In this document: piece by piece, positions 19,215 to 64,000 of the stretch
Layout: the number at the start of each line of letters is the position of its first letter
How positions within the stretch are numbered: position 1 is the stretch's first letter
Assembly: GCA_905233425.1 (NCBI GenBank)
Contig: CAJOEC010000023.1
Location: forward strand, 1 to 64,000
Length of the DNA: 64,000 nt
Direction: 5' to 3'
From: an uncultured Prevotella sp.
Lineage (GTDB): Bacteria > Bacteroidota > Bacteroidia > Bacteroidales > Bacteroidaceae
Notes under the pieces: model-generated
Databases searched by the model: none
What the model saw: only the letters and a program-made list of their open reading frames with translations
What the model was told of the DNA's origin: nothing
Position numbers and translations under genes: made by a program

Positions 19215-19430
19215 ATGAGAGACAGCACCATCGACTACGTCGCAGTCAAGAACCCGCTCGGCACCATCATCTGGAAACGCAAGGACGGCTCAGTCCACAT
19301 CCGCGTCGAGATGACACAGGAACAGCTGAACGCCACCATCGAAAAAGCATTTTCATCCTTAAAGTCCCGCCGCTCTCTTTCGTCCGTTCCCCCGGCTGAG
19401 AGCCGGGAAACCCAGAAACAACAGCCATGA
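19215..19430 (+). CDS. Small protein with R1 repeat as its C-terminus
   Basis: A 71-residue protein. Residues 1-50 (VKNPLGTIIWKRKDGSVHIR, TQEQLNATIEKAF) look like a real small beta-alpha fold. The last 17 residues (SSVPPAESRETQKQQP) are translated from an R1 hairpin repeat that supplies the tail and leads into the stop codon. It overlaps the next gene by ATGA. Confidence 0.5.
   Translation: MRDSTIDYVAVKNPLGTIIWKRKDGSVHIRVEMTQEQLNATIEKAFSSLKSRRSLSSVPPAESRETQKQQP
19378..19407 (+). repeat. R1 hairpin copy, inside a gene
   Basis: TTTCGTCCGTTC followed by stem CCCGGCT / AGCCGGG with loop GAG. Translated as SSVPPAESR. Confidence 0.9.
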
Positions 19431-19717
19431 CACCCACCCAGCTCACCCTCGACCTCGACGACTACGGCCTCAGCCGCGAGCAGGCCTGCATCCTCTGCCA
19501 CCTCTCAGCTGAGTGCTCCGGCTGCTGCGCCAGGTGCACCCACCCCAACGGATGCCCAGGCCAGACTTGCAGCCAGCCATCTCGTGAACGCGAAGGCAAC
19601 CGTTGGGAAGCATGGATGCACATCCTGGGGACTGCCCTCCCGCAACTGGCACAATACATAGCCCCGGAACTCCGAAAGAAATACGGCATCAACAAACTAA
19701 TACGCAAACAACTATGA
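19427..19717 (+). CDS. Cys-rich protein with clamp-binding-like N-terminus
   Basis: A 96-residue protein. The N-terminus MTPTQLTLDLDDYG contains QLTLDL, close to the hexapeptide clamp-binding motif of Hda (QLSLPL). The centre is a Cys cluster (CILCHLSAECSGCCARC, then CPGQTC), probably zinc-binding. The C-terminus is a helix (ALPQLAQYIAPELRKKYG). A role at the replication clamp is an inference from the motif. Confidence 0.5.
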   Translation: MTPTQLTLDLDDYGLSREQACILCHLSAECSGCCARCTHPNGCPGQTCSQPSREREGNRWEAWMHILGTALPQLAQYIAPELRKKYGINKLIRKQL

Positions 19718-20019
19718 ACAACAAGACATCATCACAGATGGCCGAACTCTACGGCCTACCATCCAGCACAGCCTTCAATAAGCTCCTCGCACGCTGCGGC
19801 ATACTCATACACAACGAAAAGGGCTACGTCATAGCAGAGACACTGAGCGGACAGGGCTACGCCACAACCGTCACCTGCTGGTTCTTCCTCCCCTCAGGAC
19901 AGAAGGCCTCAAAGAAACGCGCCGCATGGACAGAGAAAGGACAGGCACTCATACACCAGCGTCTCGGCCGCCTCGGCATCGTGCCCAAGGACCAGCAGCG
20001 CAAACTCTTCACCAACTGA
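19714..20019 (+). CDS. KilAC/antirepressor-C-like protein
   Basis: A 101-residue protein: SSTAFNKLLARCGILIHNEKGYVIAE ... GYATTVTCWFFLP ... AAWTEKGQALIHQRL (the first piece spans two short motifs, SSTAFNKLLARCG and ILIHNEKGYVI). This order of motifs, ending in WTEKG..xIH, is that of the C-terminal ANT/KilAC domain of phage antirepressors, without an N-terminal Bro or AntA domain. It overlaps the previous gene's stop by 4 nt. It could counter a repressor or bind DNA. Confidence 0.6.
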   Translation: MNNKTSSQMAELYGLPSSTAFNKLLARCGILIHNEKGYVIAETLSGQGYATTVTCWFFLPSGQKASKKRAAWTEKGQALIHQRLGRLGIVPKDQQRKLFTN

Positions 20020-20037
20020 CAAGCACCACACACCACT

Positions 20038-20379
20038 ATGGACCTCCACACCATCCTCTACTCGCCCAACGCAGCCAACATTCAGGTCGTCATCAACGCA
20101 GAAGAGCTGCGCAAATGCTTCGAGAAATTCACAGACTGGGGAATGAAGCGCATAAAGGAGCGCGACGAGCCTACATACTACAGCCGCGAAGAACTGCTCC
20201 AGCTGCTCCACTGCTCAGACCCCACCCTCCTGCGCTACCGCCGAAAAGGCATCATCCCCGAGCCCGTCACCATAGAGGGCCGCGTACTCTACGACAAGGC
20301 CAAGGTGCGAGAGGCCATGCTCAGCGGAAACATCCGACTCAAGCGAAGGTACAACCACAAGACCGGAGACATCGAATGA
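20038..20379 (+). CDS. HTH protein, excisionase-like (first paralog)
   Basis: A 113-residue protein with an N-terminal helical part and a MerR/HTH_17-type domain: YYSREELLQLLHCSDPTLLR, YRRKGIIPEPVTIEGRVLYDK, KVREAML. These are DNA-binding folds of excisionases and small regulators. The related gene at 21827-22147 shares the core (TREEVMQLLHISNGTLYNF). The last codons overlap the next gene. Confidence 0.65.
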   Translation: MDLHTILYSPNAANIQVVINAEELRKCFEKFTDWGMKRIKERDEPTYYSREELLQLLHCSDPTLLRYRRKGIIPEPVTIEGRVLYDKAKVREAMLSGNIRLKRRYNHKTGDIE

Positions 20380-20549
20380 ACCAGAACCGTGCACAAAGCG
20401 AATTGGAAGCAGCCCTGTACTCCATCAGCGCAGACATATACCAGCGGGCCGCCACCACCGGCATACACTCCCTCGAAAGCCTCTGCCGCAAGGCCCACAT
20501 CATACAGCTGCGCCTACGCTCCATGAAAAGCGGCAGCGAGAAAGAATAG
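20376..20549 (+). CDS. Small helical protein
   Basis: A 57-residue protein, MNQNRAQSELEAALYSISAD..., almost wholly helical and charged. It is translationally coupled (ATGA) to the HTH gene. No family recognised. Confidence 0.45.
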   Translation: MNQNRAQSELEAALYSISADIYQRAATTGIHSLESLCRKAHIIQLRLRSMKSGSEKE

Positions 20550-20686
20550 AACAGATAAAACAGCCTGTCAACGTCATCACCGCCAGACAGAAGAACATCC
20601 CAAACGGAAAACCTCCATTTTCATACGATTATTTCGTCCATTGTCCCGCCTGGTAGGCGGGCACCATCAAATTAAAAAAAACAATT
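20550..20686. other. Short gap holding an R1 copy
   Basis: Nothing else is seen in these 137 bases. The R1 copy lies in their second half. Confidence 0.5.
20632..20661 (+). repeat. R1 hairpin copy
   Basis: TTTCGTCCATTGT then CCCGCCT / AGGCGGG with loop GGT; 25 nt before the next start codon. Confidence 0.85.
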
Positions 20687-20989
20687 ATGAAAACCAACGA
20701 CATCAAACGCCTTGAAAAAAAACAAGAGCAGATTTTCCAGTATGCTGCTATATTTCAAATGGCACTTGCCAACGTTTTCAATGATGAAGAAAATGATTAC
20801 TTCATCGAAATAAAGAACGAGGACATCACAGACATTGTGACCGGCTCAGTTATCGGTTACTTGAGTTTCATTAGTCACCTGACACGCCGAAAGGGTAACT
20901 TCCATGACCATTTGCACTTGGTTGATGACATACTTCTTCAGTACCTTATGCAATATGGTAGGCAGAATGATGATGATGACGAAGGATAA
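20687..20989 (+). CDS. Hypothetical protein
   Basis: A 100-residue, mainly helical, acidic protein (KRLEKKQEQIFQYAAIFQMA, ITDIVTGSVIGYLSFISHL, tail RQNDDDDEG). More AT-rich than its neighbours, suggesting separate acquisition. No motif recognised. Confidence 0.45.
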   Translation: MKTNDIKRLEKKQEQIFQYAAIFQMALANVFNDEENDYFIEIKNEDITDIVTGSVIGYLSFISHLTRRKGNFHDHLHLVDDILLQYLMQYGRQNDDDDEG

Positions 20990-21008
20990 CCACTAAAACC
21001 AACAAATC

Positions 21009-21629
21009 ATGAGCAAGTACAACAGACCATGCCGACTGAAAAAGGAGGCCAGGCCATTCTTCGAGGAGAAGTTGGCCGAAAGAATATTAAGTTTTGACCA
21101 GTGGCATAACTACTACCACATGGACGAAAACGCGCTGGAAGAGGTGCAAGAGGTGTATATCACCTATGGCAACAAACGCTATTCGAAATACAGTACGTCG
21201 GGCGTGTATGATGACCTCGGCGGATGGGCCAACCCCGATAATGACGAATTCAAGAAAAACGGAGAGGCAGGAGGCAAGTTCTGCTTCACCATACACTTCC
21301 CGTCAATGAAATTTGAGGAGCACGACAAATTCTCAAAGGGACGGCTGATTGCCGGGTTGATGGATAGGATTCAGCAGGTTGCCGACAGGTACTTCGAACA
21401 GTTCGCATCAGGAGAAATCGACGACATCGGAAACGAAAAAAAAGAAATGAATTACGACCACTACTACATCATCACTGCCATCAACCGCCAGACCGGCCTT
21501 CGTGAACCCATCTCCTCGCCCCGCTGCTACTCAGTAGCCTACCGCATGCTACTCAAAAAGCAGTCAGGCAAGCGCGGCGCCCTCCCGCGCAAATACATGA
21601 ACCCACGTCTGGAGGAATACCCACCATGA
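21009..21629 (+). CDS. Two-part protein with a small ITAIN-type domain
   Basis: A 206-residue protein. Residues 1-145 form an acidic alpha/beta part (VQEVYITYGNKRYSKY, GGWANPDNDEFKKN, FCFTIHFPSMKFEEHDK). The last 60 (YYIITAINRQTGLREPISSP, SVAYRMLLKK) resemble the separate small protein at 26306-26494 (YCITAINILTTRREPVTPP), so this looks like a fusion of two phage domains. The first part is richer in A/T than the second. Function unknown. Confidence 0.5.
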   Translation: MSKYNRPCRLKKEARPFFEEKLAERILSFDQWHNYYHMDENALEEVQEVYITYGNKRYSKYSTSGVYDDLGGWANPDNDEFKKNGEAGGKFCFTIHFPSMKFEEHDKFSKGRLIAGLMDRIQQVADRYFEQFASGEIDDIGNEKKEMNYDHYYIITAINRQTGLREPISSPRCYSVAYRMLLKKQSGKRGALPRKYMNPRLEEYPP

Positions 21630-21642
21630 CCAGCGCCCCCCC

Positions 21643-21673
21643 CCTCGTCCGTTCCCCCGGCTGGGAGCCGGGG
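21643..21673 (+). repeat. R1 hairpin copy with shifted leader
   Basis: CTCGTCCGTTC then CCCCGGCT / AGCCGGGG with loop GGG. Followed by a second small palindrome CGGCGGCAGCCGCCG (21682-21696). Confidence 0.85.
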
Positions 21674-21826
21674 AAAACCCACAGCAACGGCGGCAGCCGC
21701 CGGTCGGCAAGGAATAGGCCGGGCATCCGTTTCATCGGGTTTCGCGGGTGCACACAGCGCAACCAGGAACGCGCAACGTCAGCAGTCCAACTCTGCAGCC
21801 GCCTCAACAACAAAAAAACAACCGCA

Positions 21827-22147
21827 ATGGAAACACCCCTACACCAGCTCATCAACTCACGACAGGCATCATCAACGCTTCTCGTGCTCTCCGCAGCCGA
21901 CCTCAAGGCACTCACCGACACACTCGTCACCGAGACACGCCGCGCAGTGGAGGAGCAGCAACGCCCAGTCTACCTCACACGCGAAGAGGTTATGCAGCTC
22001 CTCCATATCTCCAACGGAACACTCTACAACTTCGTCCGCGCAGGAAAACTCAACCCCGTCATGGTCGGAGACAAGAAACGCTACATACGCTCAGAAATCG
22101 ACGAAGCCATCCGTAAAGGACAGCTCGCCAAATACATCCACAAATAA
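21827..22147 (+). CDS. HTH protein, excisionase-like (second paralog)
   Basis: A 106-residue protein: helical N-terminal half (SAADLKALTDTLVTETRRAV), then an HTH_17 domain YLTREEVMQLLHISNGTLYN, FVRAGKLNPVMVGDKKRYIR. Compared with 20038-20379 the recognition helix differs, so the two may read different sites, for example excision and transcription. A longer in-frame reading to 21626 passes through the R1 copy and is not used. Confidence 0.7.
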   Translation: METPLHQLINSRQASSTLLVLSAADLKALTDTLVTETRRAVEEQQRPVYLTREEVMQLLHISNGTLYNFVRAGKLNPVMVGDKKRYIRSEIDEAIRKGQLAKYIHK

Positions 22148-22166
22148 CCCCCAAACAATCACAGTC

Positions 22167-22322
22167 ATGAAACAGCTAATCAAGATCCTATTCACAGACG
22201 ACGACCAACCCACAGGACGCCGCGACACATCTACAGCAATGCAGATCCTCGCCACAGCCATCTTCCTCCTCCTCTTCATCCTCGTATGCGGGTTCGCAGG
22301 ATGGCTCGACAGCCGCTGGTAA
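22167..22322 (+). CDS. Small single-span membrane protein
   Basis: A 51-residue protein, MKQLIKILFTDDDQPTGRRD..., with one hydrophobic helix (MQILATAIFLLLFILVCGFA) near the C-terminus and a cytoplasmic-looking N-terminus. Its size and topology fit phage membrane regulators or exclusion peptides. Ends just before an R1 copy. Confidence 0.55.
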   Translation: MKQLIKILFTDDDQPTGRRDTSTAMQILATAIFLLLFILVCGFAGWLDSRW

Positions 22323-22330
22323 ACTCCCCC

Positions 22331-22361
22331 TTTTCGTCCATTCCCCCGGCTGAGAGCCGGG
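22331..22361 (+). repeat. R1 hairpin copy
   Basis: TTTTCGTCCATTC then CCCCGGCT / AGCCGGG with loop GAG; 16 nt before the next start codon. Confidence 0.9.
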
Positions 22362-22377
22362 CCAACACCCCAAAACC

Positions 22378-22620
22378 ATGCAACGACAACCCATCAACAT
22401 CATCCGAGACAACAAGCGCAAACGCTGCGCCACATGCCGACACGCACGCCTCATCAGCTACGGACTCTATGAGCCGCTGCTCGCAGAGTGCACACTCCAG
22501 CCAAACCCATACGACCGGGGCGGACACCCTTTCGCCATCATGGTAGCAAACCTGCAGCGGTGCAAGCAGCACGATTTCCGGCACAGCCCAGCCAACAAAG
22601 AAAAACGACAGAAGAAATAG
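22378..22620 (+). CDS. Cys/His zinc-finger-like protein
   Basis: An 80-residue basic protein with C-x2-C (RCATCRHARL), a later single Cys (ECTLQPNPYDRGG) and C..H (RCKQHDF), enough for one zinc site. The ends are Lys/Arg-rich. Likely binds nucleic acid. Ends 9 nt before the replication gene. Confidence 0.5.
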   Translation: MQRQPINIIRDNKRKRCATCRHARLISYGLYEPLLAECTLQPNPYDRGGHPFAIMVANLQRCKQHDFRHSPANKEKRQKK

Positions 22621-22629
22621 CCATGCAGC

Positions 22630-23571
22630 ATGAAAGGATTCATCAAACTGCCACGCTCCTTCCTGCAATGGGAGTGGTGGAACCGACAGCCTCACCTGTC
22701 GCTCTTCCTCTGGCTCCTCATAAAGGCACACATCACCGACCAGAAGATTCAGGGCATACTGGTACGCCGAGGCTCAGTACTCACCACCTGGAACGAACTG
22801 CAGAACGCCACAGGATGCTCACGAGGAGCACTCTCACGCGCACTGAAAGACCTCTTGGACAGCGGAGAAATTATCACAAGAACGGACTGCAAGAAAACCG
22901 TCATAATCATCTGTCACTATGAAGATTACAACGGAGGCGACAACACGCTTTGGACTGATAGCGGACTGACAGCGGACTGTCAGCGGACTGATACACATCT
23001 TATTAAAGGAGAAATAGAGAATGAGAAAGATATATATAGCGCGTCTGCGCGAGATTTTTCTGACGATGGCTTTGTCTCTGAAAGCGACTGCCGCGCCTGG
23101 ATGCGGCGATACAACCGCATCGCAGCAGCCTTCGGGGCGCCACCGGCCGACAAGCTCACCGACAAACGCATACTCAAAATACAGCAGCGAGTCCGGGAAC
23201 GCGGACGTGGCTCAGTCGACATCATGTTCCAACGCCTGGAGCAGTCAGCCTACTTCTTCGCCGACGGTTCTCACGGCTTCCGTGGCGACTTCACCAACCT
23301 CTGGTCCTCCAACACCTACACACGAGTCATCGAAGGCAACTTTATCCCCAACAAACCACCGTGCCCGCCGCATCAGCGGCAGGAAGCGCCCAAAGAGGAG
23401 AAACCGCCAACAGGATCCTGGCTCGACGACTACCACGAGGAGAAACGCGCCACACCCTCCGAGCGACAGCAGCAGATGCGCCAGTACGCTCGCGAACACC
23501 CCGACAGCTATGTTGCCAAGATGGTCGCCGACTGGGACAAAGAAAAACAAGTACAAACCCCCAAAAAATGA
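22630..23571 (+). CDS. DnaD-like replication initiation protein
   Basis: A 313-residue protein with an N-terminal winged helix, MKGFIKLPRSFLQWEWW ... LVRRGSVLTTWNELQNATG, CSRGALSRALKDLLDSGEI, ITRTDCKKTVIIICHYEDYN. This N-terminus is the usual start of phage replisome organisers of Bacteroidetes. The C-terminal half has a helical lobe (SDCRAWMRRYNRIAAAFGAP) with KILKIQQRVRERGR, followed by a Pro-rich linker with an R2 repeat (KPPCPPHQRQEAP) and a basic tail. Likely recruits the host helicase at the phage origin. The linker tolerates the repeat. Confidence 0.65.
   Translation: MKGFIKLPRSFLQWEWWNRQPHLSLFLWLLIKAHITDQKIQGILVRRGSVLTTWNELQNATGCSRGALSRALKDLLDSGEIITRTDCKKTVIIICHYEDYNGGDNTLWTDSGLTADCQRTDTHLIKGEIENEKDIYSASARDFSDDGFVSESDCRAWMRRYNRIAAAFGAPPADKLTDKRILKIQQRVRERGRGSVDIMFQRLEQSAYFFADGSHGFRGDFTNLWSSNTYTRVIEGNFIPNKPPCPPHQRQEAPKEEKPPTGSWLDDYHEEKRATPSERQQQMRQYAREHPDSYVAKMVADWDKEKQVQTPKK
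23356..23382 (+). repeat. R2 hairpin copy, inside replication gene
   Basis: CCACCGTGCCC then GCCGC ATCA GCGGC. Translated in the linker. Confidence 0.75.
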
Positions 23572-23577
23572 CAACAC

Positions 23578-23724
23578 ATGACAGACCTCGAATACTACCG
23601 CTACAGAAAACAGCTCCAACAGCTAAGGAAGCTCGAGAAGGAATACCCAACGAGAAGCATCAGCAACACCATCCAGAACATCGATGCCCGTCTCCAATAC
23701 CACTACGCCACCCGCAAGCACTGA
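23578..23724 (+). CDS. Small basic helical protein
   Basis: A 48-residue protein, MTDLEYYRYRKQLQQLRKLE..., entirely charged helix. It lies a few bases after the replication gene and may be a small accessory. No family recognised. Confidence 0.45.
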   Translation: MTDLEYYRYRKQLQQLRKLEKEYPTRSISNTIQNIDARLQYHYATRKH

Positions 23725-23790
23725 CACTCACACCCGTTGTCACTCACCCCCCCGTTGTCACTCACCCCCGTCATCCCCATTTTATTCCCC
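23725..23790. repeat. Short tandem repeat
   Basis: Three nearly equal units of CCCGTTGTCACTCACC or shorter, ending at an R1 copy. The C-rich end (CACCCCC) resembles the C14 tract at 26527. Confidence 0.6.
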
Positions 23791-23795
23791 ATTCT

Positions 23796-23827
23796 ATTTT
23801 CGTCCATTCCCCTGCCTGAGAGGCGGG
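23796..23827 (+). repeat. R1 hairpin copy
   Basis: TTTTCGTCCATTC then CCCTGCCT / AGGCGGG with loop GAG, one imperfect pair. Confidence 0.85.
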
Positions 23828-23850
23828 CCCACAAAAAAGCACCACCCACA

Positions 23851-24354
23851 ATGAAACACAAAGAATCCGACCTGCAGATCCGCTGCCTCAAATGGTTCCG
23901 CTACCAGTACCCCGCCTACGCCCCCCTCCTCTACCATCCAAAGAACAAGCGCAACGGAAACCGCCGCCAAGGAGCCATCGCCAAGGCAGAGGGCGTGCAG
24001 CCCGGCGTCGCCGACCTCATACTGCAAGTGCCCTCCATCGTCGGCGACGAACTCACACAAGGCACATACGCCTTCAACAAAACAAACCGCCTCTGCCACT
24101 CACTCGCCATCGAGCTTAAGACCAAGACAGGCCGCCAGTCAAAGGAGCAGCGACGATGGCAGCGCTATTTCGAGGCAGCCGGAGGAAAGTACATCGTCAT
24201 ACGCTCCTACGAAGAGTTCACTGCCCAGCTAACCACCTACCTCGACACAGTGCTGCCACGAATACACGACGACATCAACAGCACCCACGCCGACATACAG
24301 AGCGAGGCCGACGAAGCCGCCCGACAGCAGTTCCAGAAAATCCTCCACCCGTAG
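23851..24354 (+). CDS. VRR-NUC-family nuclease
   Basis: A 167-residue protein with the VRR-NUC layout: MKHKESDLQIRCLKWFRYQYP, GAIAKAEGVQPGVADLILQVP (catalytic Asp in GVADLIL), then SLAIELKTKTGRQSKEQRRW (E-x-K), and YIVIRSYEEF. VRR-NUC proteins are PD-(D/E)XK nucleases of phages and of junction-resolving pathways. Probably cuts branched or recombination DNA. The window reads without gap into the ParB gene via an R2 copy. Confidence 0.8.
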   Translation: MKHKESDLQIRCLKWFRYQYPAYAPLLYHPKNKRNGNRRQGAIAKAEGVQPGVADLILQVPSIVGDELTQGTYAFNKTNRLCHSLAIELKTKTGRQSKEQRRWQRYFEAAGGKYIVIRSYEEFTAQLTTYLDTVLPRIHDDINSTHADIQSEADEAARQQFQKILHP

Positions 24355-24384
24355 CAGGGGCAAGCCCCGCGCCAGACCGGCCAG

Positions 24385-24413
24385 CCACCGTGCCCGAAGC
24401 ATCAGCTTCGGGG
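24385..24413 (+). repeat. R2 hairpin copy
   Basis: CCACCGTGCC then CGAAGC ATCA GCTTCGGGG. A further small hairpin (GGGGCAAGCCCC) lies at 24357-24368. Confidence 0.8.
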
Positions 24414-24443
24414 TAGTATAAACCCTCAAAAAAACAAACCACT

Positions 24444-26216
24444 ATGACCACCACAACACCCACAACCATCCAAAACATCCGTCTCTTCCTCATCACTCCC
24501 TCGCCCCTCAACCCCAGAAAGACCATCGACGAGGACTCCCTGAAGGAGTTGGCCGCCAACATCGAGAAGCAGGGCCTCCTGCAGCCCATCACCGTCCGCC
24601 CCGTCTCCCCGGCCTCCTCCCGTCCGTCCCCACTGCCCCCTCCCCCCTTTTCGTCCGTCCCCTCTTTCGTCCATTCCCCCCTTTCGTCCCCTCTTTCGTC
24701 CATTCCCCCGGCTGAGAGCCGGGACGGCCGGGCCCCCTACGAGATCGTCTGCGGCGAGCGACGCTACCGCGCCTGTTCCCTCCTCCACTGGGAGACCATC
24801 CCCTGCATCATCCGCCCCATGACCGACGAGGAAGCACTCGACGCCATGATCACCGAGAACCTCCAGCGTCGCGACGTCGACCCCGTCGAGGAGGCAGAGG
24901 CCTTCCGCATCCTCTCCCAGCGAGGACAGACCGTCGACGACCTCGCCGCACGCTTCGGAAAGTCCACCGCCTACATCCGAGACCGCATGAAGCTTACCAG
25001 CCTCATCCAACCGCTGCAGAAAGCCCTCTCACACCAACAGCTCACACTCCGCGGCGCCGTCCTCCTCTCCCGTCTCTCAGACGATGACCAGAAGCAGTTC
25101 ATCAAACGCGAACTCGAACGTGGCCACGACATCGCCGACTCCGACAAACAACTCTCAACCGGCTACGTCGAAGAGTGGCTCGACCGCTTCTTCCGCAACC
25201 TTCACAAAGCACCCTTCCAGGACGGTGAGACACTCGACGAGGCGTGGAACCCAGAAGGCATCCACATACGCCGCTGCGACCGCTGCGACTGCAACACCAA
25301 CAACCATGGATGCCTCTTCGCCGACATGAAGCTCACCGAACCGCAATGTACCGACGAGCGATGCTACAACCGGAAAACCGACATCTACTACGACTGCATC
25401 ATACAGCAGCTTGACGCAAGAATCGTACGCGAAGGAAAGCACCCGGCACCGGGGCAGGTCATCATCGTTGACGGTGAGCCTTACTCACAGGAGGCAAAGG
25501 AACGCCGCTCACAGTGGCTCACAAAAATAAAGTGCTACGGCTACCGCTTATTCACGGCGAAGGAGACAGACATATACTACGGCACCCCGGAAAAGTTGCT
25601 CGGCAAAGGAGAACTCATCGAGGGCATCAGCATCTACAACATATCACAAGCCTACCATGACCCCATCCGCTACTACCGCCTCCACTCAGCCACAGTGCCC
25701 GGGGCGTCAGCCCAGGGAAACCTCCCCGCACGCCTCGCAGAGAGGGCAGCAACCATCGCCCAAAAGACCGAGACAAAGGTTGCCAACTACGCCAAGAAGA
25801 ACTTCGACAAAGACGCATACATCGCCGACGACTCCATCCTCAACGAGTGGGAGAAAACCATCGTCTGGGCAATCATCTTCGAGGCCGTCGACTACCTCGA
25901 TAGAGTCACCCTCATACCAGAAACAAAATACAATACTCCCACCATCCAGCAGATACGCTCCTTCCGCGACAGACAGAAGACCGTACGCCTCACAGAACAT
26001 ACATACGGCCCCTCAAACGCATGGATGCGGCGCGCCATCGCTAACTGGGCCAAGAAGTCCTACCACGAGTCTTTCCTCGAGGAACTGCTCAAACAGTCTT
26101 CCACGGAACACTACGCCCACATCGCCGAGTTCCGCGACGACGCCCGCACCCGCATCGACTCCATCAGCCAGGAACTCCACGACATGGGCTACGACGAAAA
26201 CGCCAACCCCCTCTAA
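24444..26216 (+). CDS. ParB-like protein interrupted by repeats
   Basis: A 590-residue protein. LNPRKTIDEDSLKELAANIE, KQGLLQPITVRPV and YEIVCGERRYRA (residues 99-110) make the ParB N-terminal CTP-binding/nuclease-type domain; an HTH follows (TVDDLAARFGKSTAYIRDRM). Residues about 54-97, rich in Pro/Ser, are a run of R1 leaders plus one full R1, placed in a loop between two strands of the ParB fold. A Cys cluster (CDRCDCNTNNHGC, CTDERC) follows near residue 300 and may bind zinc. An R2 copy lies at about residue 416. Segregation, DNA bridging or nicking are possible; function unproven. Confidence 0.75.
   Translation: MTTTTPTTIQNIRLFLITPSPLNPRKTIDEDSLKELAANIEKQGLLQPITVRPVSPASSRPSPLPPPPFSSVPSFVHSPLSSPLSSIPPAESRDGRAPYEIVCGERRYRACSLLHWETIPCIIRPMTDEEALDAMITENLQRRDVDPVEEAEAFRILSQRGQTVDDLAARFGKSTAYIRDRMKLTSLIQPLQKALSHQQLTLRGAVLLSRLSDDDQKQFIKRELERGHDIADSDKQLSTGYVEEWLDRFFRNLHKAPFQDGETLDEAWNPEGIHIRRCDRCDCNTNNHGCLFADMKLTEPQCTDERCYNRKTDIYYDCIIQQLDARIVREGKHPAPGQVIIVDGEPYSQEAKERRSQWLTKIKCYGYRLFTAKETDIYYGTPEKLLGKGELIEGISIYNISQAYHDPIRYYRLHSATVPGASAQGNLPARLAERAATIAQKTETKVANYAKKNFDKDAYIADDSILNEWEKTIVWAIIFEAVDYLDRVTLIPETKYNTPTIQQIRSFRDRQKTVRLTEHTYGPSNAWMRRAIANWAKKSYHESFLEELLKQSSTEHYAHIAEFRDDARTRIDSISQELHDMGYDENANPL
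24648..24723 (+). repeat. R1 copy preceded by three leader-only copies
   Basis: TTTTCGTCCGTCC, CTTTCGTCCATTCCCCC, CTTTCGTCCCC, then a full R1 with CCCCGGCT / AGCCGGG, loop GAG. In frame inside the ParB gene. Confidence 0.85.
25689..25716 (+). repeat. R2 hairpin copy inside ParB gene
   Basis: CCACAGTGCC then CGGGGC GTCA GCCCAGG. Translated as ATVPGASAQ. Confidence 0.7.
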
Positions 26217-26220
26217 CTCT

Positions 26221-26288
26221 TCCCTTCATTCCCCCGGCTGAGAGCCGGGCAAAAATACTTTCGTCCATTCCCCCGGCTGAGAGCCGGG
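26221..26288 (+). repeat. Two R1 copies in tandem
   Basis: Copies at 26221-26249 (leader worn to CCCTTCATTC) and 26259-26288 (TTTCGTCCATTC). Both have CCCGGCT / AGCCGGG with loop GAG. They lie between the ParB gene and the next. Confidence 0.9.
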
Positions 26289-26305
26289 CCTAAAAAACCT
26301 TCATC

Positions 26306-26494
26306 ATGACAAATAGAAAACAATACTGCATCACCGCCATCAACATCCTCACCACACGCCGCGAGCCTGTCACCCCTCCCTGCTCCCTGAAGACAGCCCG
26401 CCGCCTCCTCGACCGCATGAACAACACACCACGCCGCAAAGACACCCCCTACAGCCTCTACATCATCGAGGCCTACCCCAAGGCCACCGTGTAA
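26306..26494 (+). CDS. Small ITAIN-domain protein
   Basis: A 62-residue protein, with YCITAINILTTRREPVTPP and KTARRLLDRMN. Related to the C-terminal 60 residues of 21009-21629. Probably a small beta-alpha regulator. Its stop falls inside an R2 copy. Confidence 0.5.
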   Translation: MTNRKQYCITAINILTTRREPVTPPCSLKTARRLLDRMNNTPRRKDTPYSLYIIEAYPKATV

Positions 26495-26512: not shown

Positions 26513-26526
26513 CAACCCTCAACTCA

Positions 26527-58166: not shown

Positions 58167-58185
58167 TCACCAATAAAAACAAAAA

Positions 58186-58213
58186 GCCACCGTGCCAGCC
58201 GCGTTAGCGGCGC
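58186..58213 (+). repeat. R2 hairpin copy
   Basis: CCACCGTGCC then AGCCGC GTTA GCGGC. Lies between two tail genes. Confidence 0.75.
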
Positions 58214-58221
58214 AAACACCC

Positions 58222-58968
58222 TCACTCACCACCACCACCTCCCCCTTCAGAGCCGCCCTCGGAACCCTCAGAACCCTCAGAGCCGCCCTCAGAGCCGCCC
58301 TCCTGCACAGTCCTGCTCTTTGCCGCCACAATCATCATCGCCTGAGCCCAGCGGTACGCAGCACTGGCATAACACAGCATACTGCCGTCAGAAAGCATGT
58401 CAGCACGCGGGATGCTGCCGATCATCCCCTGAAGGGCAGCTATCGCAAAGTGGTCGCGGACTTCCAGCTCCTCCAGGACAACACCGCTCTCGTCTTCCGC
58501 ACGAGTGTCCTGAGTGGGAGCAAGCCACACATCCACAACATACAGCATCTTGCCTACCAGGCCGGGATGCGTAAGGCAGCGCGTGATCCTCCCGCTACCG
58601 TCAAAGAGAACCTCGTTGCCGCCAAGGCCCACAACGTAGAAAGGATAGGGCGACACGCCCGACATCACACCGCAGTAGGTGAGGTCGCTGGGGTCAAACA
58701 GCCCGGTAGGATGACCTTCACCGCCTGTCTCACCCTCTTCGCCCTCCGGTTCTGCCGGTTCTGCCGACTCACCCTCCGGAGCGGACGGTTCCGTCGTCTC
58801 GCCCTCAGAGGTGGCCGGTTCCGCCGACTCAACCACCGAAGTGGTTTCTTCATCGTCATCAGTACTAACGGGGATGGAGAAGTCGGCATTGTTCGGAACG
58901 CCTATCAGCATACCGCTCTTCGCCTTCGCAAGGTCAAAGTCCATCCAATCGTATCTGTTCATTGCCAT
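58222..58968 (-). CDS. Acidic-linker virion protein
   Basis: A 248-residue protein. N-terminus RYDWMDFDLAKAKSGMLIG, a long Glu/Pro/Ser/Gly linker (EGETTEPSAPEGESAEPAEP) and a folded centre (YCGVMSGVSPYPFYVVGLGG, GKMLYVVDVWLAPTQ, AAYRWAQAMMIVAAKSRT), ending in Gly/Ser/Glu repeats (GGSEGGSEGSEGSEGG). The linker repeats GEG/AEPEG units. Probably a virion component that binds the tail. Start MAMNRYDW is used. Confidence 0.5.
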   Translation of the reverse strand: MAMNRYDWMDFDLAKAKSGMLIGVPNNADFSIPVSTDDDEETTSVVESAEPATSEGETTEPSAPEGESAEPAEPEGEEGETGGEGHPTGLFDPSDLTYCGVMSGVSPYPFYVVGLGGNEVLFDGSGRITRCLTHPGLVGKMLYVVDVWLAPTQDTRAEDESGVVLEELEVRDHFAIAALQGMIGSIPRADMLSDGSMLCYASAAYRWAQAMMIVAAKSRTVQEGGSEGGSEGSEGSEGGSEGGGGGGE

Positions 58969-59091
58969 AATCGTTCCCTTTAAAAGAAGCAACACTGCCA
59001 ACGCCGCAAAGGTAAAGCAATAAACAATACCCAACTGTTAATAATCAATAAAAAAAAGCGACCGCCGTATTTCACACTGCCACCGCCCCTT

Positions 59092-59124
59092 TTTTCGTCC
59101 GTTCCCCCGGCTGAGAGCCGGGGC
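59092..59124 (+). repeat. R1 hairpin copy
   Basis: TTTTCGTCCGTTC then CCCCGGCT / AGCCGGGG with loop GAG, 6 nt beyond the stop codon of the giant gene. Confidence 0.9.
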
Positions 59125-59130
59125 CTGCCT

Positions 59131-62100
59131 CTATATGTCTATCCGCTCCATCTGCTCCAGCGTCCACCTCCGCCTGTCCCTTAACAGCTTCATCATCGGC
59201 CCGTCGGCTCCACCCCCCAGCATCCCTTTGTGCTGGCGTATCAGGCTCTCCCCGGTCTTCATCAGCTGCTCCGCCTCAAACCACTTCGCGTTGTCCTCAC
59301 GGTAGACAGCAGCCTGCTCCTGCATACCGGCATCGAGCAGCTCCTTCCATTTCTTCACGTGCTCGTTGATCTTCCGCTTCATCTGCTTCATCTTCACATC
59401 AGCCTCAATATCATCAGAAGTGGCCAGCTCCAGATAAATTTCGTCCGTTGACCCGCCTGAGAGGCGGCCTTCTTCCTCCTCCCGGTAGCTCCGCGCCTTC
59501 TTCACTGCCGCACTGCCCGGCTTGCGCTCGCCAGACTCTATCAGACGCTCTATCCGCGCTTTCGCCCGTCTCTTCTCAGCTGCCGTCTTGGAATTGTCGA
59601 AAGCATCCCTGGCTGCAGCCATAGGATCCTTGCCGCCGTCGATGGCGTTCAGCTCTTCTATCATGGCCTGCTTGTAAAGGGACTCGCTCTCCTTGATGAA
59701 GTCCTTGTCGCTCTTCTCACTGGCGGCCTTCTCGCCTTTCTTCAGGTCGTCCATTATCTTCTTGTAGTGGTCTATCACCATGGCGCGGGCGTAGTCCTTG
59801 CTGCCTGTCAACTCCTTTAACTTCTCGTTGGCTTCCTTCAGGGCTGCCTTGTCGCCGCTCTCCTTGGCGTCGACAGCCTTCTGCTGCCACCCTCTCACCT
59901 GATGCATCAGCTCGTCGTGCTCCTCAGTCAGACCGTAGTACTCGTCACCGAGCACACCGCCGCCGTCGCGCTCAACAGGCCTGTTGAGGAAGCGGTTTAT
60001 TACGGGCGTCTGGTATATCTTCGGCACCTCGCCCTGCGCTGCCGTCACTACTACGTCAAAGGCTTTCGACACGGTATCATACATTCCGCCAAAATACCCT
60101 TGCAGCAGATGGTTCCACACTGCAGGATTGTTCACATAGTCGCCCCAGAAAGGCAGATGCTTCTCCACCACGCCTTTACTGAACTCGTCACCGCCGGTCC
60201 ATTTGTTGACTGCTTCGCTCACTTTCACCATCCATGCCGGAGTGCTGACGTATGCCTTGCTCCACTGAGGCGCATACTTGTTCCCTTGGTTCTCCTTCCA
60301 TATCGGCTTGCCGGTGAAGTCCACGTTCAAACCTACCTGCATCAACGGCTGAACCATGGTAGGTACAAAATCCACCATCAGGTTCCCTCCGTTGCCCGTC
60401 GGATTGATGGGCACAAGGTCGGCAACAGAAGAAAACATCTCTACTCCCCAATTATTCACCGGGTGATCCATAACAATGCTCGACAGCATCTCACCCACAC
60501 CGTAAAACACCCTGAACTCCTGAGCAAGCGGTATCGTCACAAAGTTCTTCGTACCGGGAAGCCAGAAAACAAGGTTGTTCTTCCTCACCCAGGGCGGAAG
60601 GTTCCAGTATGCTTCCTTGTCATCGTCATCACCAAGCATGTTCAGCAGCCACTGGTTGATAATAGGCATCAAAGCACCGCCAGCGACAAACGCAGCCGTT
60701 ACTGCTCCGAACTTTAGCGGATGACCCTTAGCCATCCTATACATGTTTGCCAAAGCCTGAATAGCCGGGTTCACGAAGATAAACAGGTCTCTCGCCTCAG
60801 CATTGCCAAGGCCGCCCGTGCCTTTCCTGTTGAAGTTTAGCGTCACGTCCTTGGCATCAGCAATACTCTCCTCCAGCGTCTTACCCATCTGCCTGCTCGT
60901 CATATACACGATGAAGCGCGTGGCATCCTCCGCACAGCGGTTGTAGAACTCAAACGTCTCGCCCATCAGCCGCAGACCCTTCCCTACGTATGTCTCCTTC
61001 ACTGAGCGGCTCGGTTCTCCCGAGCCGAAAAGGCTGCTGCCGTTCATCTGCGCCACCTCCTTGCGCATCTTCTCCTTGAAGCTCTCGACGCTCAGCATGT
61101 TCACAAAACCAGTCTCGCCGCCCTCGTCCATGAACTCCTTGAACAGACGTTCCGTCTCGTTGCTCTCGTCAAGCGTACCCTTCATCCACTTACGCAGCAG
61201 ACTCGGCATCAGACCCGTTGGCTGCTTGCTCGCCGGTACCCACTTACTGCTCTCGCCAACCCTCGGAGCCAGCACCTTCGCCACATTGGCGATGAAGCGT
61301 GCGTTATAGACCGGCCCCTCGTTCACAGCCACGCTGGCCCCTGCCATGTTCAAGTCCCTACTCAAATTGCTAATCACAAAAGCAGGGTTTTTAGACGTAA
61401 AGAACTCAGCCATCGCACGGTTCAGTTTCGCCACCTTCTGTCCTAACCAAGTGTCGCTTATCCTATTAACTGCTCTGGCACCACTGCCGTTCAAAGCCTG
61501 GGCTGCCTTCGGATTCCCATTAATATAAAGTTGGTAAGTCCGCCCGGCTCGCTGCACTTCCACCACGTGCTCACTCTTCTGTCCGCTCGTAGCATGGACA
61601 TTGAGACGCAGACGGCCCCTCACAGGCATAGCTCTTCCCTCTCGCTGCTTCGCGGCCATCTCCTCGTTGAAGTCGCTCACTATCTGGGCCACCTCGTCAC
61701 CGCTCTTACCGGCTGTGTCGGCACTCCTAAGCACCCAAAACGGGGCATCACCCTCTGCCGCTATATTCTCATACCACGACTCGCTTATGCTCACAAGGCT
61801 CGTCGGATTGTTCATCACGTAGTTCAGGAAGTGCTGCTTCATCAGGTTCCTGTGGCCGCTCAGGATGGTGCTCACGGCGATATTCCCGATATATGCCAGA
61901 GGATCCTCGGCCTTAGAGGTACGCCCCCAGGTCTTCTTCACGGCTGGGGAAAATACATTCTCCTTGCCCATATAGGTGTACACATCGCTTGCCTTGTCCT
62001 CATCCCAGCCTCGAAGCGGTATGTAGAAGTCAAACATACCCTTCACCTTCTCGTAGGCTTTCTTGTCAATAAGACCGCTCTCGTAGCTCTCCCTAAGCGT

Positions 62101-64000
62101 CTCTTCGGTTGCCGCGTTTATCCGCTTCCACAGCTCCCGCGCCCCTTTCGTCCGTTCCTCCGGCTGAGAGTTGTGGATGGCCGCTGCCTCTCCAGCAAAG
62201 ACCGCATCCTCTGCCTCCTGCCGTGCTGTCAGATACGCCTGTCTCATCGCTTCGTCATACTGCTTCCACAACGCCCGGCGCTCTTTCGTGTCGATGGCAC
62301 GCTGCGCAGCACGCCTTATCTTCTGAGCATCGTCATACATCTTCTTTGCGAAGGTCTCCGTAAGCCCTGAATAGTCCTTCTGGTAATCATCATAGTAGCT
62401 CTCAGCAACCGTCCCCTTTTCGTCCATTCCCCCGCCTGAGAGGCGGGCTTCATCTTTCTTGGTTCCCTTTCCCAGCTGCTCACGTATCACCTTCTCAATA
62501 ATTCTCAAGTACTCGCCATAGCTGATGTTGCCATTGTCGTATTCTTCCTTCGCGTGCTTATAGGCAAACCGCTCTCTCACACTGTCCATGAAGTCGTCGG
62601 CACCTGTACGCTCCCGCTCTTCCAGCTCTTGCTTCTTGGCTTTATAGTCGTCTTCTGTCACCCTGCCTTTCACATACTCCTTCTCTAACTTCTTACGCTC
62701 CTCAGCTACGTCGGAGGCTATTTTTGCTTTGGCACCATCTCGGAAAGCATAGTATACGTTACGCTCCAAACCGCTCTTTGCTATTATGTAATCCATGCCC
62801 TGCTCGTGCGTCCAGCCATGTTCCTTGCAGAAGTCGTTGAAAGCCTTCAGCATCGGACGGTAGAATCGCCAGTCATACTGCTCGGTCCTGTTCTTGGCCC
62901 TGCCGTGCATCCTGTTCTCAAACCTGTAGGCATCCTCAGCTCCAGTGGCCACGTTACCCGTCTCGGCCGCAATGGCATCCTGGATCGCTTTCAGACCCAC
63001 CATCGAGTCCTGCCACGCCTCCTGCCATTTCAAGCTACGCTTCGCCACTTCCTTTTCGTACTGCTCCTTAGCGACGTCATCACCCCTGGTATCATCCTCA
63101 CTGATTTGCGCCTCCATCTGTCCTGCCTCCTGCCCTGACTGCGCGGCCTCCATGACCTTTCCGAAGTCCTCCTCCACCAAGTCCCTCACAGGCATCCGCA
63201 CGATAGCCTCAAGCGAACTCCAGTCATCGCCTATTGTCCGGCTCTTCTTGCCGCCGAACAGCCGCAAGATGGCCTCCCAGAACTTCCGCAGCACACTCTT
63301 CACCTCATCGATGATCTTCTGTGGCGTGTCCTTCTTGAAAGCAGCCCTCATGAACTCCTCTTCGCCGGTGGTTCCAGAAAGCCTCGAATGTACCTCACTG
63401 GCCATCCTGTCCTCATCCTCCCAGATATTCCTATAGTCCGGATTCTTGCGTATCTCTTCCCAGACAGCAGTATGCTTCATCGCGGCCACAACCTTCTTCC
63501 ATAGCTCCGGCTGCTCCTTCTGGCACCACTTGTCCCATAGGTGTGTGCACTCATGCAGCGGCGTGTTGGGATTCAGCCCCCCGGCGGTCAGATACACCTG
63601 TTTGCCGTCGATCCAGCCTAATATCCGCTTCCCTTCACGCTGGAACATAAACTGAATATTCACCTCTTCACGATGGGCAATGCCTGTGGTGTCCTTGTAC
63701 TCGCCGCTGTAAAGTGTCTGCTCAATGCTCTTGATAATATCAACGTAGGGATTGCCAGAAGCTTTGGAAAGCTCTTTGTCAGGATAAAAGAACTCAACAA
63801 TATGTGCCGCGCCATCGTTATTTACACCATTGTTAGGCTTGCGTGATATGACAATGCTTATACCTTCCTGCTCACCTCGATAGTCAAATGATGATACGGT
63901 CGCATTGTGATCGGACAAGCGCATAGTGACGATAGTACCATTCTTGGCTTGTATGGTCACATACTCACTTTTGGAACCATCTCTTTCGGCTCCAAGGGCA
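59131..64000 (-). CDS. Giant polyvalent protein with zincin domain (partial)
   Basis: At least 1620 residues, open to the window edge (no stop before 64000), so the N-terminus lies outside. Near its visible start is a zincin, HECTH (about residues 136-140 from the first visible Met), in GGLNPNTPLHECTHLWDKWC. Later comes a helical C-terminal half of the LPD38/large polyvalent type (DLNMAGASVAVNEGPVYNAR, VEKHLPFWGDYVNNPAVWNH). Residues in between are coiled coil (KKLEKEYVKGRVTEDDYKAK). Three R1 copies are read in frame (RLSGGGMDEK and RLSGGSTDE among them). Polyvalent proteins of this kind are carried into the host with the phage DNA. Confidence 0.7.
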   Translation of the reverse strand, partial: ALGAERDGSKSEYVTIQAKNGTIVTMRLSDHNATVSSFDYRGEQEGISIVISRKPNNGVNNDGAAHIVEFFYPDKELSKASGNPYVDIIKSIEQTLYSGEYKDTTGIAHREEVNIQFMFQREGKRILGWIDGKQVYLTAGGLNPNTPLHECTHLWDKWCQKEQPELWKKVVAAMKHTAVWEEIRKNPDYRNIWEDEDRMASEVHSRLSGTTGEEEFMRAAFKKDTPQKIIDEVKSVLRKFWEAILRLFGGKKSRTIGDDWSSLEAIVRMPVRDLVEEDFGKVMEAAQSGQEAGQMEAQISEDDTRGDDVAKEQYEKEVAKRSLKWQEAWQDSMVGLKAIQDAIAAETGNVATGAEDAYRFENRMHGRAKNRTEQYDWRFYRPMLKAFNDFCKEHGWTHEQGMDYIIAKSGLERNVYYAFRDGAKAKIASDVAEERKKLEKEYVKGRVTEDDYKAKKQELEERERTGADDFMDSVRERFAYKHAKEEYDNGNISYGEYLRIIEKVIREQLGKGTKKDEARLSGGGMDEKGTVAESYYDDYQKDYSGLTETFAKKMYDDAQKIRRAAQRAIDTKERRALWKQYDEAMRQAYLTARQEAEDAVFAGEAAAIHNSQPEERTKGARELWKRINAATEETLRESYESGLIDKKAYEKVKGMFDFYIPLRGWDEDKASDVYTYMGKENVFSPAVKKTWGRTSKAEDPLAYIGNIAVSTILSGHRNLMKQHFLNYVMNNPTSLVSISESWYENIAAEGDAPFWVLRSADTAGKSGDEVAQIVSDFNEEMAAKQREGRAMPVRGRLRLNVHATSGQKSEHVVEVQRAGRTYQLYINGNPKAAQALNGSGARAVNRISDTWLGQKVAKLNRAMAEFFTSKNPAFVISNLSRDLNMAGASVAVNEGPVYNARFIANVAKVLAPRVGESSKWVPASKQPTGLMPSLLRKWMKGTLDESNETERLFKEFMDEGGETGFVNMLSVESFKEKMRKEVAQMNGSSLFGSGEPSRSVKETYVGKGLRLMGETFEFYNRCAEDATRFIVYMTSRQMGKTLEESIADAKDVTLNFNRKGTGGLGNAEARDLFIFVNPAIQALANMYRMAKGHPLKFGAVTAAFVAGGALMPIINQWLLNMLGDDDDKEAYWNLPPWVRKNNLVFWLPGTKNFVTIPLAQEFRVFYGVGEMLSSIVMDHPVNNWGVEMFSSVADLVPINPTGNGGNLMVDFVPTMVQPLMQVGLNVDFTGKPIWKENQGNKYAPQWSKAYVSTPAWMVKVSEAVNKWTGGDEFSKGVVEKHLPFWGDYVNNPAVWNHLLQGYFGGMYDTVSKAFDVVVTAAQGEVPKIYQTPVINRFLNRPVERDGGGVLGDEYYGLTEEHDELMHQVRGWQQKAVDAKESGDKAALKEANEKLKELTGSKDYARAMVIDHYKKIMDDLKKGEKAASEKSDKDFIKESESLYKQAMIEELNAIDGGKDPMAAARDAFDNSKTAAEKRRAKARIERLIESGERKPGSAAVKKARSYREEEEGRLSGGSTDEIYLELATSDDIEADVKMKQMKRKINEHVKKWKELLDAGMQEQAAVYREDNAKWFEAEQLMKTGESLIRQHKGMLGGGADGPMMKLLRDRRRWTLEQMERIDI
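59439..59468 (+). repeat. R1 copy in the giant gene (1)
   Basis: TTTCGTCCGTTGA then CCCGCCT / AGGCGG with loop GAG. Read on the minus strand as RLSGGSTDE. Confidence 0.9.
62145..62174 (+). repeat. R1 copy in the giant gene, worn (2)
   Basis: TTTCGTCCGTTC then CTCCGGCT / AGTTGTG: the 3' stem half has decayed. Confidence 0.6.
62417..62448 (+). repeat. R1 copy in the giant gene (3)
   Basis: TTTTCGTCCATTC then CCCCGCCT / AGGCGGG with loop GAG. Read on the minus strand as RLSGGGMDEK. Confidence 0.9.

What the first reader, a model, noticed from the sequence alone, without database searches (positions are those of the whole stretch)
19378..62448. Dispersed hairpin element R1 present in 31 copies, all in the same orientation
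Each copy has leader TTTCG(T)CC/CA-ATTC or close, then a stem-loop of 6-8 bp (for example CCCGGCT, GAG, AGCCGGG). Stems differ between copies yet stay paired (CCCGCCT/AGGCGGG, CCCGCT/AGCGGG, CACGGCT/AGCCGTG), which shows selection for the hairpin. All copies read the same way on the + strand although genes around them run both ways (rightward at 19-30 and 46-52 kb, leftward at 33-46 and 55-63 kb). No copy is seen in the chromosomal flank or before 19 kb. A strand-locked repeat argues against a transcript signal and for a replication, packaging, recombination or DNA-uptake mark, or for a mobile micro-element inserted by a strand-aware mechanism.
Basis: partly seen in the sequence, partly recalled or inferred. 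Interest (0 to 1): 0.95.

Follow-up and report, generated by a model that had tools for sequence, protein, structure and literature searches.

The report
Strand-locked mobile hairpins in a prophage
A 30-letter DNA hairpin occurs 39 times in one Prevotella-type prophage, always on the same strand whichever way the genes run, and it is likely a tiny mobile element that slips into single-stranded DNA while the phage replicates.

Summary
A covariance model finds 30 R1 copies in the window (plus one degenerate and one truncated) and 9 beyond it, all 39 on the + strand, all inside a 64-kb prophage (att repeats at 10693 and 74599).

R1 is an insertion. Six long phage relatives with the same late-gene directions carry none, nor do 12 records at 3 mismatches. 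Copies sit in coding linkers, in three frames of one 4023-aa gene.

The lock is not an R1 function. A second, unrelated prophage in another Prevotella genome has 14 of 14 on one strand. Other tagged hairpins in the prophage are locked alike (R2 7 of 7, GTAG-type 5 of 6). In the chromosome R1 and R2 partly agree in strand locally; GTAG-REPs do not.

Best reading: a non-autonomous, REP-like micro-element that inserts into single-stranded DNA, its strand set by replication. It works like IS200/IS605 or TnpA-REP systems but fails most CGTC-REP criteria. The enzyme is unknown, and the GC-skew sign does not fit the simplest lagging-strand version.

The parts
10693..64000 (.). Prophage, left part (whole: C23:10693-74624; integrase C23:73154-74611, minus strand)
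   Evidence: 26-bp direct repeat at 10693 and 74599 next to tRNA-Arg 10553-10627; integrase Pfam hits; portal, SU10 capsid and terminase hits
19378..19407 (+). R1 copy
   Evidence: CM 51.1 bits
20632..20661 (+). R1 copy
   Evidence: CM 48.3 bits
21643..21672 (+). R1 copy (first two bases changed)
   Evidence: CM 37.5 bits from 21645
22332..22361 (+). R1 copy
   Evidence: CM 51.8 bits
23798..23827 (+). R1 copy
   Evidence: CM 46.4 bits
24665..24679 (+). R1 truncated copy, 29 nt before the next
   Evidence: CM 13.9 bits; repeat family D9
24694..24723 (+). R1 copy, in frame inside the ParB-like gene
   Evidence: CM 51.8 bits; frame
26220..26249 (+). R1 copy with a degenerate leader, tandem partner of the next
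   Evidence: CM 29.9 bits from 26225
26259..26288 (+). R1 copy
   Evidence: CM 51.8 bits
27431..27460 (+). R1 copy
   Evidence: CM 51.3 bits
27658..27687 (+). R1 copy, inside an ORF
   Evidence: CM 44.7 bits
29445..29474 (+). R1 copy, inside an ORF in the one frame where the consensus has a stop; this copy has TGT in place of TGA
   Evidence: CM 51.2 bits; frame
29742..29771 (+). R1 copy
   Evidence: CM 44.6 bits
33195..33224 (+). R1 copy, antisense inside an ORF
   Evidence: CM 46.6 bits
41564..41593 (+). R1 copy
   Evidence: CM 43.0 bits
42626..42655 (+). R1 copy
   Evidence: CM 42.9 bits
43301..43330 (+). R1 copy
   Evidence: CM 44.5 bits
45206..45235 (+). R1 copy, tandem pair
   Evidence: CM 42.0 bits
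45244..45273 (+). R1 copy, tandem pair
   Evidence: CM 39.2 bits
46289..46318 (+). R1 copy, tandem pair (39-nt period)
   Evidence: CM 50.3 bits
46328..46357 (+). R1 copy, tandem pair
   Evidence: CM 50.3 bits
47097..47126 (+). R1 copy, in frame inside the portal gene
   Evidence: CM 43.8 bits; extra residues against 11 of 11 homologues
48415..48443 (+). R1 copy (one base shorter)
   Evidence: CM 39.1 bits
49453..49482 (+). R1 copy, tandem pair (39-nt period)
   Evidence: CM 43.6 bits
49492..49521 (+). R1 copy, tandem pair
   Evidence: CM 47.5 bits
51310..51339 (+). R1 copy
   Evidence: CM 49.8 bits
51879..51908 (+). R1 copy
   Evidence: CM 50.7 bits
55523..55552 (+). R1 copy
   Evidence: CM 50.2 bits
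59093..59122 (+). R1 copy
   Evidence: CM 51.1 bits
59439..59468 (+). R1 copy, antisense inside the 4023-aa gene 59131-71202(-)
   Evidence: CM 45.1 bits
62146..62175 (+). R1 degenerate copy, antisense inside the 4023-aa gene
   Evidence: CM 15.7 bits
62418..62447 (+). R1 copy, antisense inside the 4023-aa gene
   Evidence: CM 51.3 bits; absent from the three homologues aligned there
23356..23383 (+). R2 tagged hairpin (CCACnGTG tag)
24385..24412 (+). R2 tagged hairpin
25690..25717 (+). R2 tagged hairpin
42830..42857 (+). R2 tagged hairpin
50998..51028 (+). R2 tagged hairpin (long palindrome, so it also reads on - at 51033)
54894..54921 (+). R2-like tagged hairpin
58187..58214 (+). R2 tagged hairpin (imperfect)
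32115..32138 (+). GTAT-tagged hairpin
41928..41951 (+). GTAG-tagged hairpin
55033..55056 (+). GTAT-tagged hairpin, same stem family as 41928
55478..55502 (+). GTAG-REP; the family has 179 matches in the genome (90+/89-)
22952..22991 (+). Tandem 11-bp iterons (3.6 copies) inside an O/DnaD-like helicase-loader gene (22630-23571): candidate phage origin

Best explanation
R1 is a 30-nt tagged hairpin that is predicted to be a non-autonomous, REP-like mobile element, likely inserted through single-stranded DNA by a strand-specific enzyme, so that the strand it lands on would be set by the direction of replication. Shown: R1 is absent from relatives with the same late-gene directions; its core is 30 nt with no consistent target duplication; the hairpin is kept by compensatory changes; all 39 copies in the prophage are on one strand; a second unrelated prophage shows the same; other tagged hairpins in the same prophage share the strand; chromosomal copies partly agree in strand with their neighbours. 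Inferred: the 5' tag plus folded stem is recognised on one DNA strand, as TnpA-REP and IS200/IS605 transposases do with theirs; phage replication exposes mainly one strand, which would give both the excess of copies in prophages and the lock; copies survive only between genes or in frame in loops and linkers. Not identified: the enzyme.
For: 39 of 39 copies + in C23 and 14 of 14 + in C32, whose phage is unrelated (SPP1-type portal). No R1 in 6 long relatives by CM (341 kb) or in 12 records at 3 mismatches, with the same late-gene directions. In-frame copies in variable loops, three frames used in one gene. Stem covariation. Sharp 30-nt core, no consistent target-site duplication. R2 7 of 7 and GTAG-type 5 of 6 on the same strand of the prophage. 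Chromosome: R1 and R2 pooled agree in strand in 31 of 37 pairs within 10 kb (permutation p 0.0008), R1 with R2 on a contig in 20 of 27 (p 0.018), against 11 of 37 for the GTAG-REPs examined (61 after collapsing 74 exact matches, of 179 in all); 21 of 28 R1 lie on the local gene-majority strand (p 0.013). About 100-fold higher density in the prophage. The phage lineage has a strand asymmetry in base composition beyond coding bias, in this prophage and five of six relatives. In print: IS200/IS605 orientation follows replication direction (PMC5371812, passages); TnpA-REP acts on one strand of single-stranded REPs only (PMC8266576, passages).
Against: No transposase was found with R1: 4 Y1 genes in the genome, none with R1 within the about 3.2 kb fetched around each, and none on C23. 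CGTC repeats elsewhere also lack one. By the usual rule (recalled) that the lagging-strand template is G-rich, R1's tag strand lies on the wrong strand: the R1 strand is C-rich. The C32 prophage has no strand skew (-0.004, few + genes), and one of six relatives has none. Chromosomal agreement is partial: taken apart, R1 gives 16 of 17 within 10 kb (p 0.006) but 16 of 23 per contig (p 0.074), R2 9 of 12 (p 0.08) and 19 of 31 (p 0.14), and R1 with R2 within 10 kb 6 of 8 (p 0.18); the pairs are not independent. Leader similarity rises only weakly with proximity (p 0.0035 with, 0.034 without tandem pairs; whole element 0.17 and 0.60), so the copying route is not visible. Local orientation in the chromosome could also follow transcription (21 of 28).
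Confidence: 0.6

Rival explanations
1. Strand lock by descent: one founder R1 multiplied inside the phage by local copying (slippage, template switching or exchange between copies) that keeps orientation, without any strand-specific enzyme.
For: C23 prophage copies form their own subfamily: C at element position 12 in 23 of 36 against 1 of 24 host copies, p 2e-6 (C32 has C in 2 of 11). Head-to-tail tandem pairs with 29 to 49-nt periods occur. Chromosomal neighbours partly agree in strand.
Against: Copies sit at dozens of sites with no shared flanking sequence. Whole-element similarity does not fall with distance (p 0.60 without tandem pairs). R2 and GTAG-type hairpins share the same strand, which would need coincidence.
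Confidence: 0.2
2. R1 is a mark that the phage uses, such as a priming site on one strand, a packaging or a segregation signal.
For: Strand lock, about one copy per 1.4 kb over 19-73 kb, restriction to the prophage within contig C23, and a ParB-like gene in the phage.
Against: Relatives at 66-76% portal identity lack R1, including one (G370) with a homologue of the ParB-like gene. Copies are unevenly spaced: 10.7-19.3 kb has none, 32.2-38 and 38-42 kb one each. R1 also lies in host genes.
Confidence: 0.08
3. R1 acts in RNA, as a terminator, a stabiliser or a 5'-leader element.
For: Several chromosomal copies lie just upstream of start codons on the gene strand, and two follow a TAnnTTTG-like sequence (that promoter motif is recalled, not tested).
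Against: In the prophages R1 ignores gene direction: 16 of 37 (C23) and 2 of 13 (C32) are on the gene strand. The aligned flanks show no T-run after the hairpin. Many copies are inside reading frames.
Confidence: 0.05
4. The phage acquired R1-laden modules from another phage in which R1 was already locked.
For: The stretches with least strand skew (10.7-16 and 32-42 kb) hold 0 and 2 copies, as expected of younger modules.
Against: It only moves the question to the donor; no viral record in IMG/VR matches the exact pattern. Two skewed stretches (16-19 and 52-58 kb) also hold only 0 and 1 copies.
Confidence: 0.07

Closest known systems
CGTC-tagged REPs (CGTC-1 to CGTC-4; includes Neisseria dRS3 and Rickettsia RPE-4/RPE-6)
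   Same: Short palindrome with an unpaired CGTC motif at one end, intergenic and in-frame intragenic copies, no dedicated transposase (PMC3733652: abstract, sections 6, 15, 16 and passages).
   Different: R1 has a 7-bp stem set 6 nt from the tag, a 3-nt loop, no A/T pairs at the stem base, rarely a CCA tail, no head-to-head dimers in the prophages, and is strand-locked there.
GTAG-REPs with RAYT/TnpA-REP
   Same: Tag 5' of a hairpin, many copies, no gene of its own, thought to move as single-stranded DNA.
   Different: No GTAG tag and no R1 copy beside the four Y1 genes; GTAG-REPs in this same genome are 90+/89- and those examined are not concordant.
IS200/IS605 (IS608)
   Same: Orientation follows replication direction because insertion targets the lagging-strand template (PMC5371812, passages); no consistent target duplication here.
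   Different: R1 is 30 nt, carries no gene and has one hairpin, not two ends.
Rickettsia palindromic elements
   Same: In-frame palindromic inserts inside protein genes; R1 is 10 codons long and, read by eye, its consensus is open in 5 of 6 frames.
   Different: R1 is far shorter than RPE-1 (length recalled) and is concentrated in prophages.

Membership tests
CGTC-REP super-family (PMC3733652) | Unpaired CGTC (or TGTC/CCTC) motif at one end | tested here: met
   TTTCGT invariant and the following C at least 90% in 61 aligned copies
CGTC-REP super-family (PMC3733652) | Stem of 8-9 bp starting with A/T pairs | tested here: not met
   7-bp stem, G/C at its base; the one T-A pair closes the loop
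CGTC-REP super-family (PMC3733652) | Loop of 4 or 5 nt | tested here: not met
   3-nt loop, GNN in nearly all copies
CGTC-REP super-family (PMC3733652) | Short unpaired tail, mostly CCA | tested here: not met
   CCA follows 2 of 36 C23 copies and 3 of 11 C32 copies
CGTC-REP super-family (PMC3733652) | Mostly head-to-head dimers | tested here: not met
   0 of 53 prophage copies inverted; the close pairs are head-to-tail
RAYT-mobilised GTAG-REP | GTAG tag next to the stem | tested here: not met
   Consensus
RAYT-mobilised GTAG-REP | Copies flank a Y1/RAYT gene | tested here: not met
   4 Y1 loci, no R1 in about 3.2 kb each
IS200/IS605-like single-strand transposition (works like) | Orientation follows replication direction | tested here: inconclusive
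   Locked in two prophages and partly concordant in the chromosome, but the skew sign does not fit and C32 shows none
IS200/IS605-like single-strand transposition (works like) | Insertion without target-site duplication | tested here: met
   71 copies, 24 offsets tried: best excess 8 against 4.3 expected for 2-mers, 4 against 1.7 for 3-mers, 2 against 0.2 for 5-mers, at different offsets
IS200/IS605-like single-strand transposition (works like) | Single-stranded intermediate cut by a Y1 enzyme | not testable with these tools
   Needs biochemistry

The most novel reading that the evidence does not exclude
A phage-borne population of gene-less 30-nt micro-transposons that insert only into the strand left single during phage replication, through an unknown CGTC-hairpin-specific enzyme, so that every such prophage carries a fossil compass of its own replication direction.
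Probability: 0.3. Interest if true: 0.85.

Novelty: new variant of a known kind. Interest (0 to 1): 0.62.

Why it matters
How tagged palindromic repeats without a transposase (the CGTC type) spread was left open in print (PMC3733652, abstract and section 16). Here several hairpin families sit on one strand of a prophage, their absence in relatives gives a before state, and the strand carries the information. That makes the single-strand, replication-coupled model of REP spread directly testable, and such repeats could serve as a readout of phage replication direction.

Tried and rejected
Rejected: an RNA family (Rfam at gathering thresholds finds only the tRNA); a mark shared by the phage family (0 of 12 relatives); R1 as the ends of a Y1 element. 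The guess that R1 spreads locally was tested and is weak.

Rows set aside when strands were counted. Two C32 'R2 minus' rows are R1 stems with a CAC.GTG beside them. C23 51032/51033 minus is the mirror of a long palindromic R2. C23 50082 and C32 71454 and 33730 (minus) show no hairpin when their letters are read. The GTAG-type minus hairpin at 12271 is kept in the count (5 of 6), though its stem is unlike the others.

Replichore test: no complete genome with R1 was found. The six same-genus genomes beside G000, chosen for few contigs, lack the GTAG family, and 380 of 398 same-genus genomes have no R1-like match at 2 mismatches. The order-wide CM scan scored only 18 candidates per genome, so its copy counts are lower bounds. 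No phage relative close enough for base-level empty sites was found; protein-level comparison was used, and four of the nine copies in the 4023-aa gene could not be aligned to a homologue. Search of C84's homologues shows only that the R1-bearing stretch (between residues 517 and 553) lies outside the aligned blocks of its best hits.

In print: the listings showed no paper on strand-locked hairpins in prophages and one search returned none; these are open-licence papers only, and only the titles and abstract starts listed were seen.
Full report
OBSERVATION. A covariance model built from 61 distinct copies finds 30 R1 copies at 29.9 bits or more in the window, 9 more on the same contig up to base 73148, and on the other strand only mirror matches of the same hairpins, 19.2 bits or less. 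One degenerate copy (62146) and one truncated copy (24665) bring the window to 32. Each of the 39 has E of 2e-5 or less in 552 kb. Stem changes are compensatory (4 of 7 pairs). The conserved core is 30 nt, mostly with a pyrimidine before it and no conserved flank after it.

SETTING. The window is the first 64 kb of a 102-kb contig of a 4.93-Mb draft genome. A 26-bp direct repeat at 10693 and 74599, beside tRNA-Arg, with an integrase at 73154-74611, delimits a 63.9-kb prophage. It has a portal protein, an SU10-type capsid protein and a terminase hit, a ParB-like protein, and an O/DnaD-like helicase-loader gene that holds 3.6 tandem copies of an 11-bp unit. The host belongs to the genus of a genome deposited as Prevotella sp. 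RGIG5135: G1010 in the same-genus set has the same match coordinates as that record's G060 (inference).

R1 IS AN INSERTION. IMG/VR holds 12 relatives with portal proteins 65-78% identical. None has R1 at up to 3 mismatches, and the CM finds none in six of them fetched whole, 41.6-65.3 kb each and 341 kb in all; some may be fragments. Their late genes run in the same mixed directions; the early region is inverted in five of the six. In the portal, R1 at 47097 adds residues in a variable loop against 11 of 11 homologues. In the 4023-aa gene 59131-71202 (minus), nine copies (one degenerate) lie antisense and in frame, in all three frames (4, 3 and 2 copies). Where homologues align (five of nine) the places vary in length; at 68576 the gain is about 10 residues. 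In the one frame where the consensus has a stop, the copy at 29445 has TGT instead.

THE STRAND LOCK IS NOT ABOUT R1 ALONE. R2 (CCACnGTG plus hairpin) is + at all 7 places in the prophage, and GTAG/GTAT-tagged hairpins at 5 of 6 (rows set aside are listed under tried and rejected). In G060 contig C32 another prophage, with an SPP1-type portal, a terminase, a tape-measure gene and its own integrase, carries 14 R1 copies of 25 bits or more, all +, though its genes run mostly leftward (2 of 13 copies on the gene strand), and 3 R2 on the same strand. In both prophages R1 points toward the integrase end (n = 2). The CM finds no R1 in the contig flanks of either prophage (the C32 limits rest on a 13-bp repeat at 8705 and 72604).

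THE CHROMOSOME. At 1 mismatch or fewer the genome has 58 R1, 34 on C23 (all +) and 24 elsewhere (9 +, 15 -): about 0.53 per kb of prophage against 0.005 per kb outside. On 20 fetched host stretches (17 chosen because they had hits; the other 3 have none) the CM finds 28 copies above 25 bits; 21 of 28 lie on the local gene-majority strand (p 0.013) and 19 of 27 on their own or next gene's strand (p 0.052). R1 and R2 pooled agree in strand with neighbours in 31 of 37 pairs within 10 kb (p 0.0008) and 55 of 81 per contig (p 0.008). Taken apart: R1 16 of 17 and 16 of 23 (p 0.006, 0.074), R2 9 of 12 and 19 of 31 (p 0.08, 0.14), R1 with R2 6 of 8 and 20 of 27 (p 0.18, 0.018). The shuffles do not model shared descent of neighbours. 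GTAG-REPs in the same genome are 90+/89-, and the 61 examined (collapsed from 74 exact matches off C23) agree in only 11 of 37 pairs. R2 genome-wide is 30+/35-. C23 prophage copies are their own subfamily (position 12 is C in 23 of 36 against 1 of 24 host copies, p 2e-6; C32 2 of 11), so they likely multiplied within the phage lineage.

MECHANISM. A hairpin with a one-sided tag, no gene, no consistent target duplication, and a strand fixed by the replicon rather than by genes or by repeat family is what single-strand transposition predicts. IS200/IS605 elements insert into the lagging-strand template, and their orientation follows replication (PMC5371812, passages). TnpA-REP binds only one strand of single-stranded REPs (PMC8266576, passages). 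The phage lineage has a strand asymmetry in third-position GC skew beyond the coding component: -0.217 here, -0.07 to -0.14 in five of six relatives, about 0 in the sixth and in C32. Within the prophage the stretches with least skew (10.7-16 and 32-42 kb) hold 0 and 2 R1, but 16-19 and 52-58 kb are skewed with 0 and 1. The sign is a problem: R1's tag strand is C-rich, whereas the lagging template is usually G-rich (recalled rule). Either phage replication differs from that rule or the recognised strand is the complement. The enzyme is unknown: four Y1 genes exist, none beside R1; two of them lie beside hairpins of another family.

KNOWN KINDS. R1 resembles CGTC-tagged REPs, which include Neisseria dRS3 (pattern ATTCCC-N8-GGGAAT; PMC3898611, passages) and Rickettsia RPE-4/6, and which have no known transposase (PMC3733652: abstract, sections 6, 15, 16 and passages). 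It meets the tag criterion but fails on stem, loop, tail and dimer type, so it is not filed there. R1-like matches at 2 mismatches occur in 18 of 398 same-genus genomes, with more than two in only three (66, 21 and 7), and the exact pattern in 7 genomes of a public set, all titled as Prevotella or other Bacteroidales families, most from ruminant stomachs by their titles.

VERDICT. The enzyme and the exact strand rule are open.

Noticed in passing
G000:C10:7254-8525 (L017), G060:C20 near 91.9 kb (L034), G066:C3 near 11.5 kb (L043), G061:C54 near 43.1 kb (L040): One unnamed host gene region with the same 3' flank carries R1 copies in four genomes, in one of them four tandem copies of 63 nt, in three of them in both orientations: an old, shared R1 site.
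   Followed up: partly
Host contigs C9, C12, C18, C19, C21, C25, C70: Chromosomal R1 copies are often embedded in CTCAACCCTCAACTC-type 7-nt tandem arrays ahead of genes.
   Followed up: no
window 28510-28741: An 18-nt repeat array (12.9 units of CGGCTACGGCGACGGCTA) inside a phage ORF.
   Followed up: no
L006 (G000:C75) and L007 (G000:C53): Y1 transposase genes of QKEHH type; L006 has CCCAGGGCAACGCCCTGGG-type hairpins on both sides, L007 two such hairpins on one side. The motif resembles TnpA subclass 1.2 of PMC6006769 (passages), there described as generally without terminal hairpins.
   Followed up: partly
window 10693-32200 against G368, G373, G375, G370, G365: The early module of the phage is inverted relative to the late module in five of six relatives; G372 has the same arrangement as the window.
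   Followed up: no
G000:C23:101060-101223: Four GTAG-tagged hairpins in head-to-tail tandem in the host flank.
   Followed up: no
window 33777-37253 and 37993-40425: Two long leftward genes with a weak or no phage-family match, little strand skew and no R1 inside: probably a young module.
   Followed up: no
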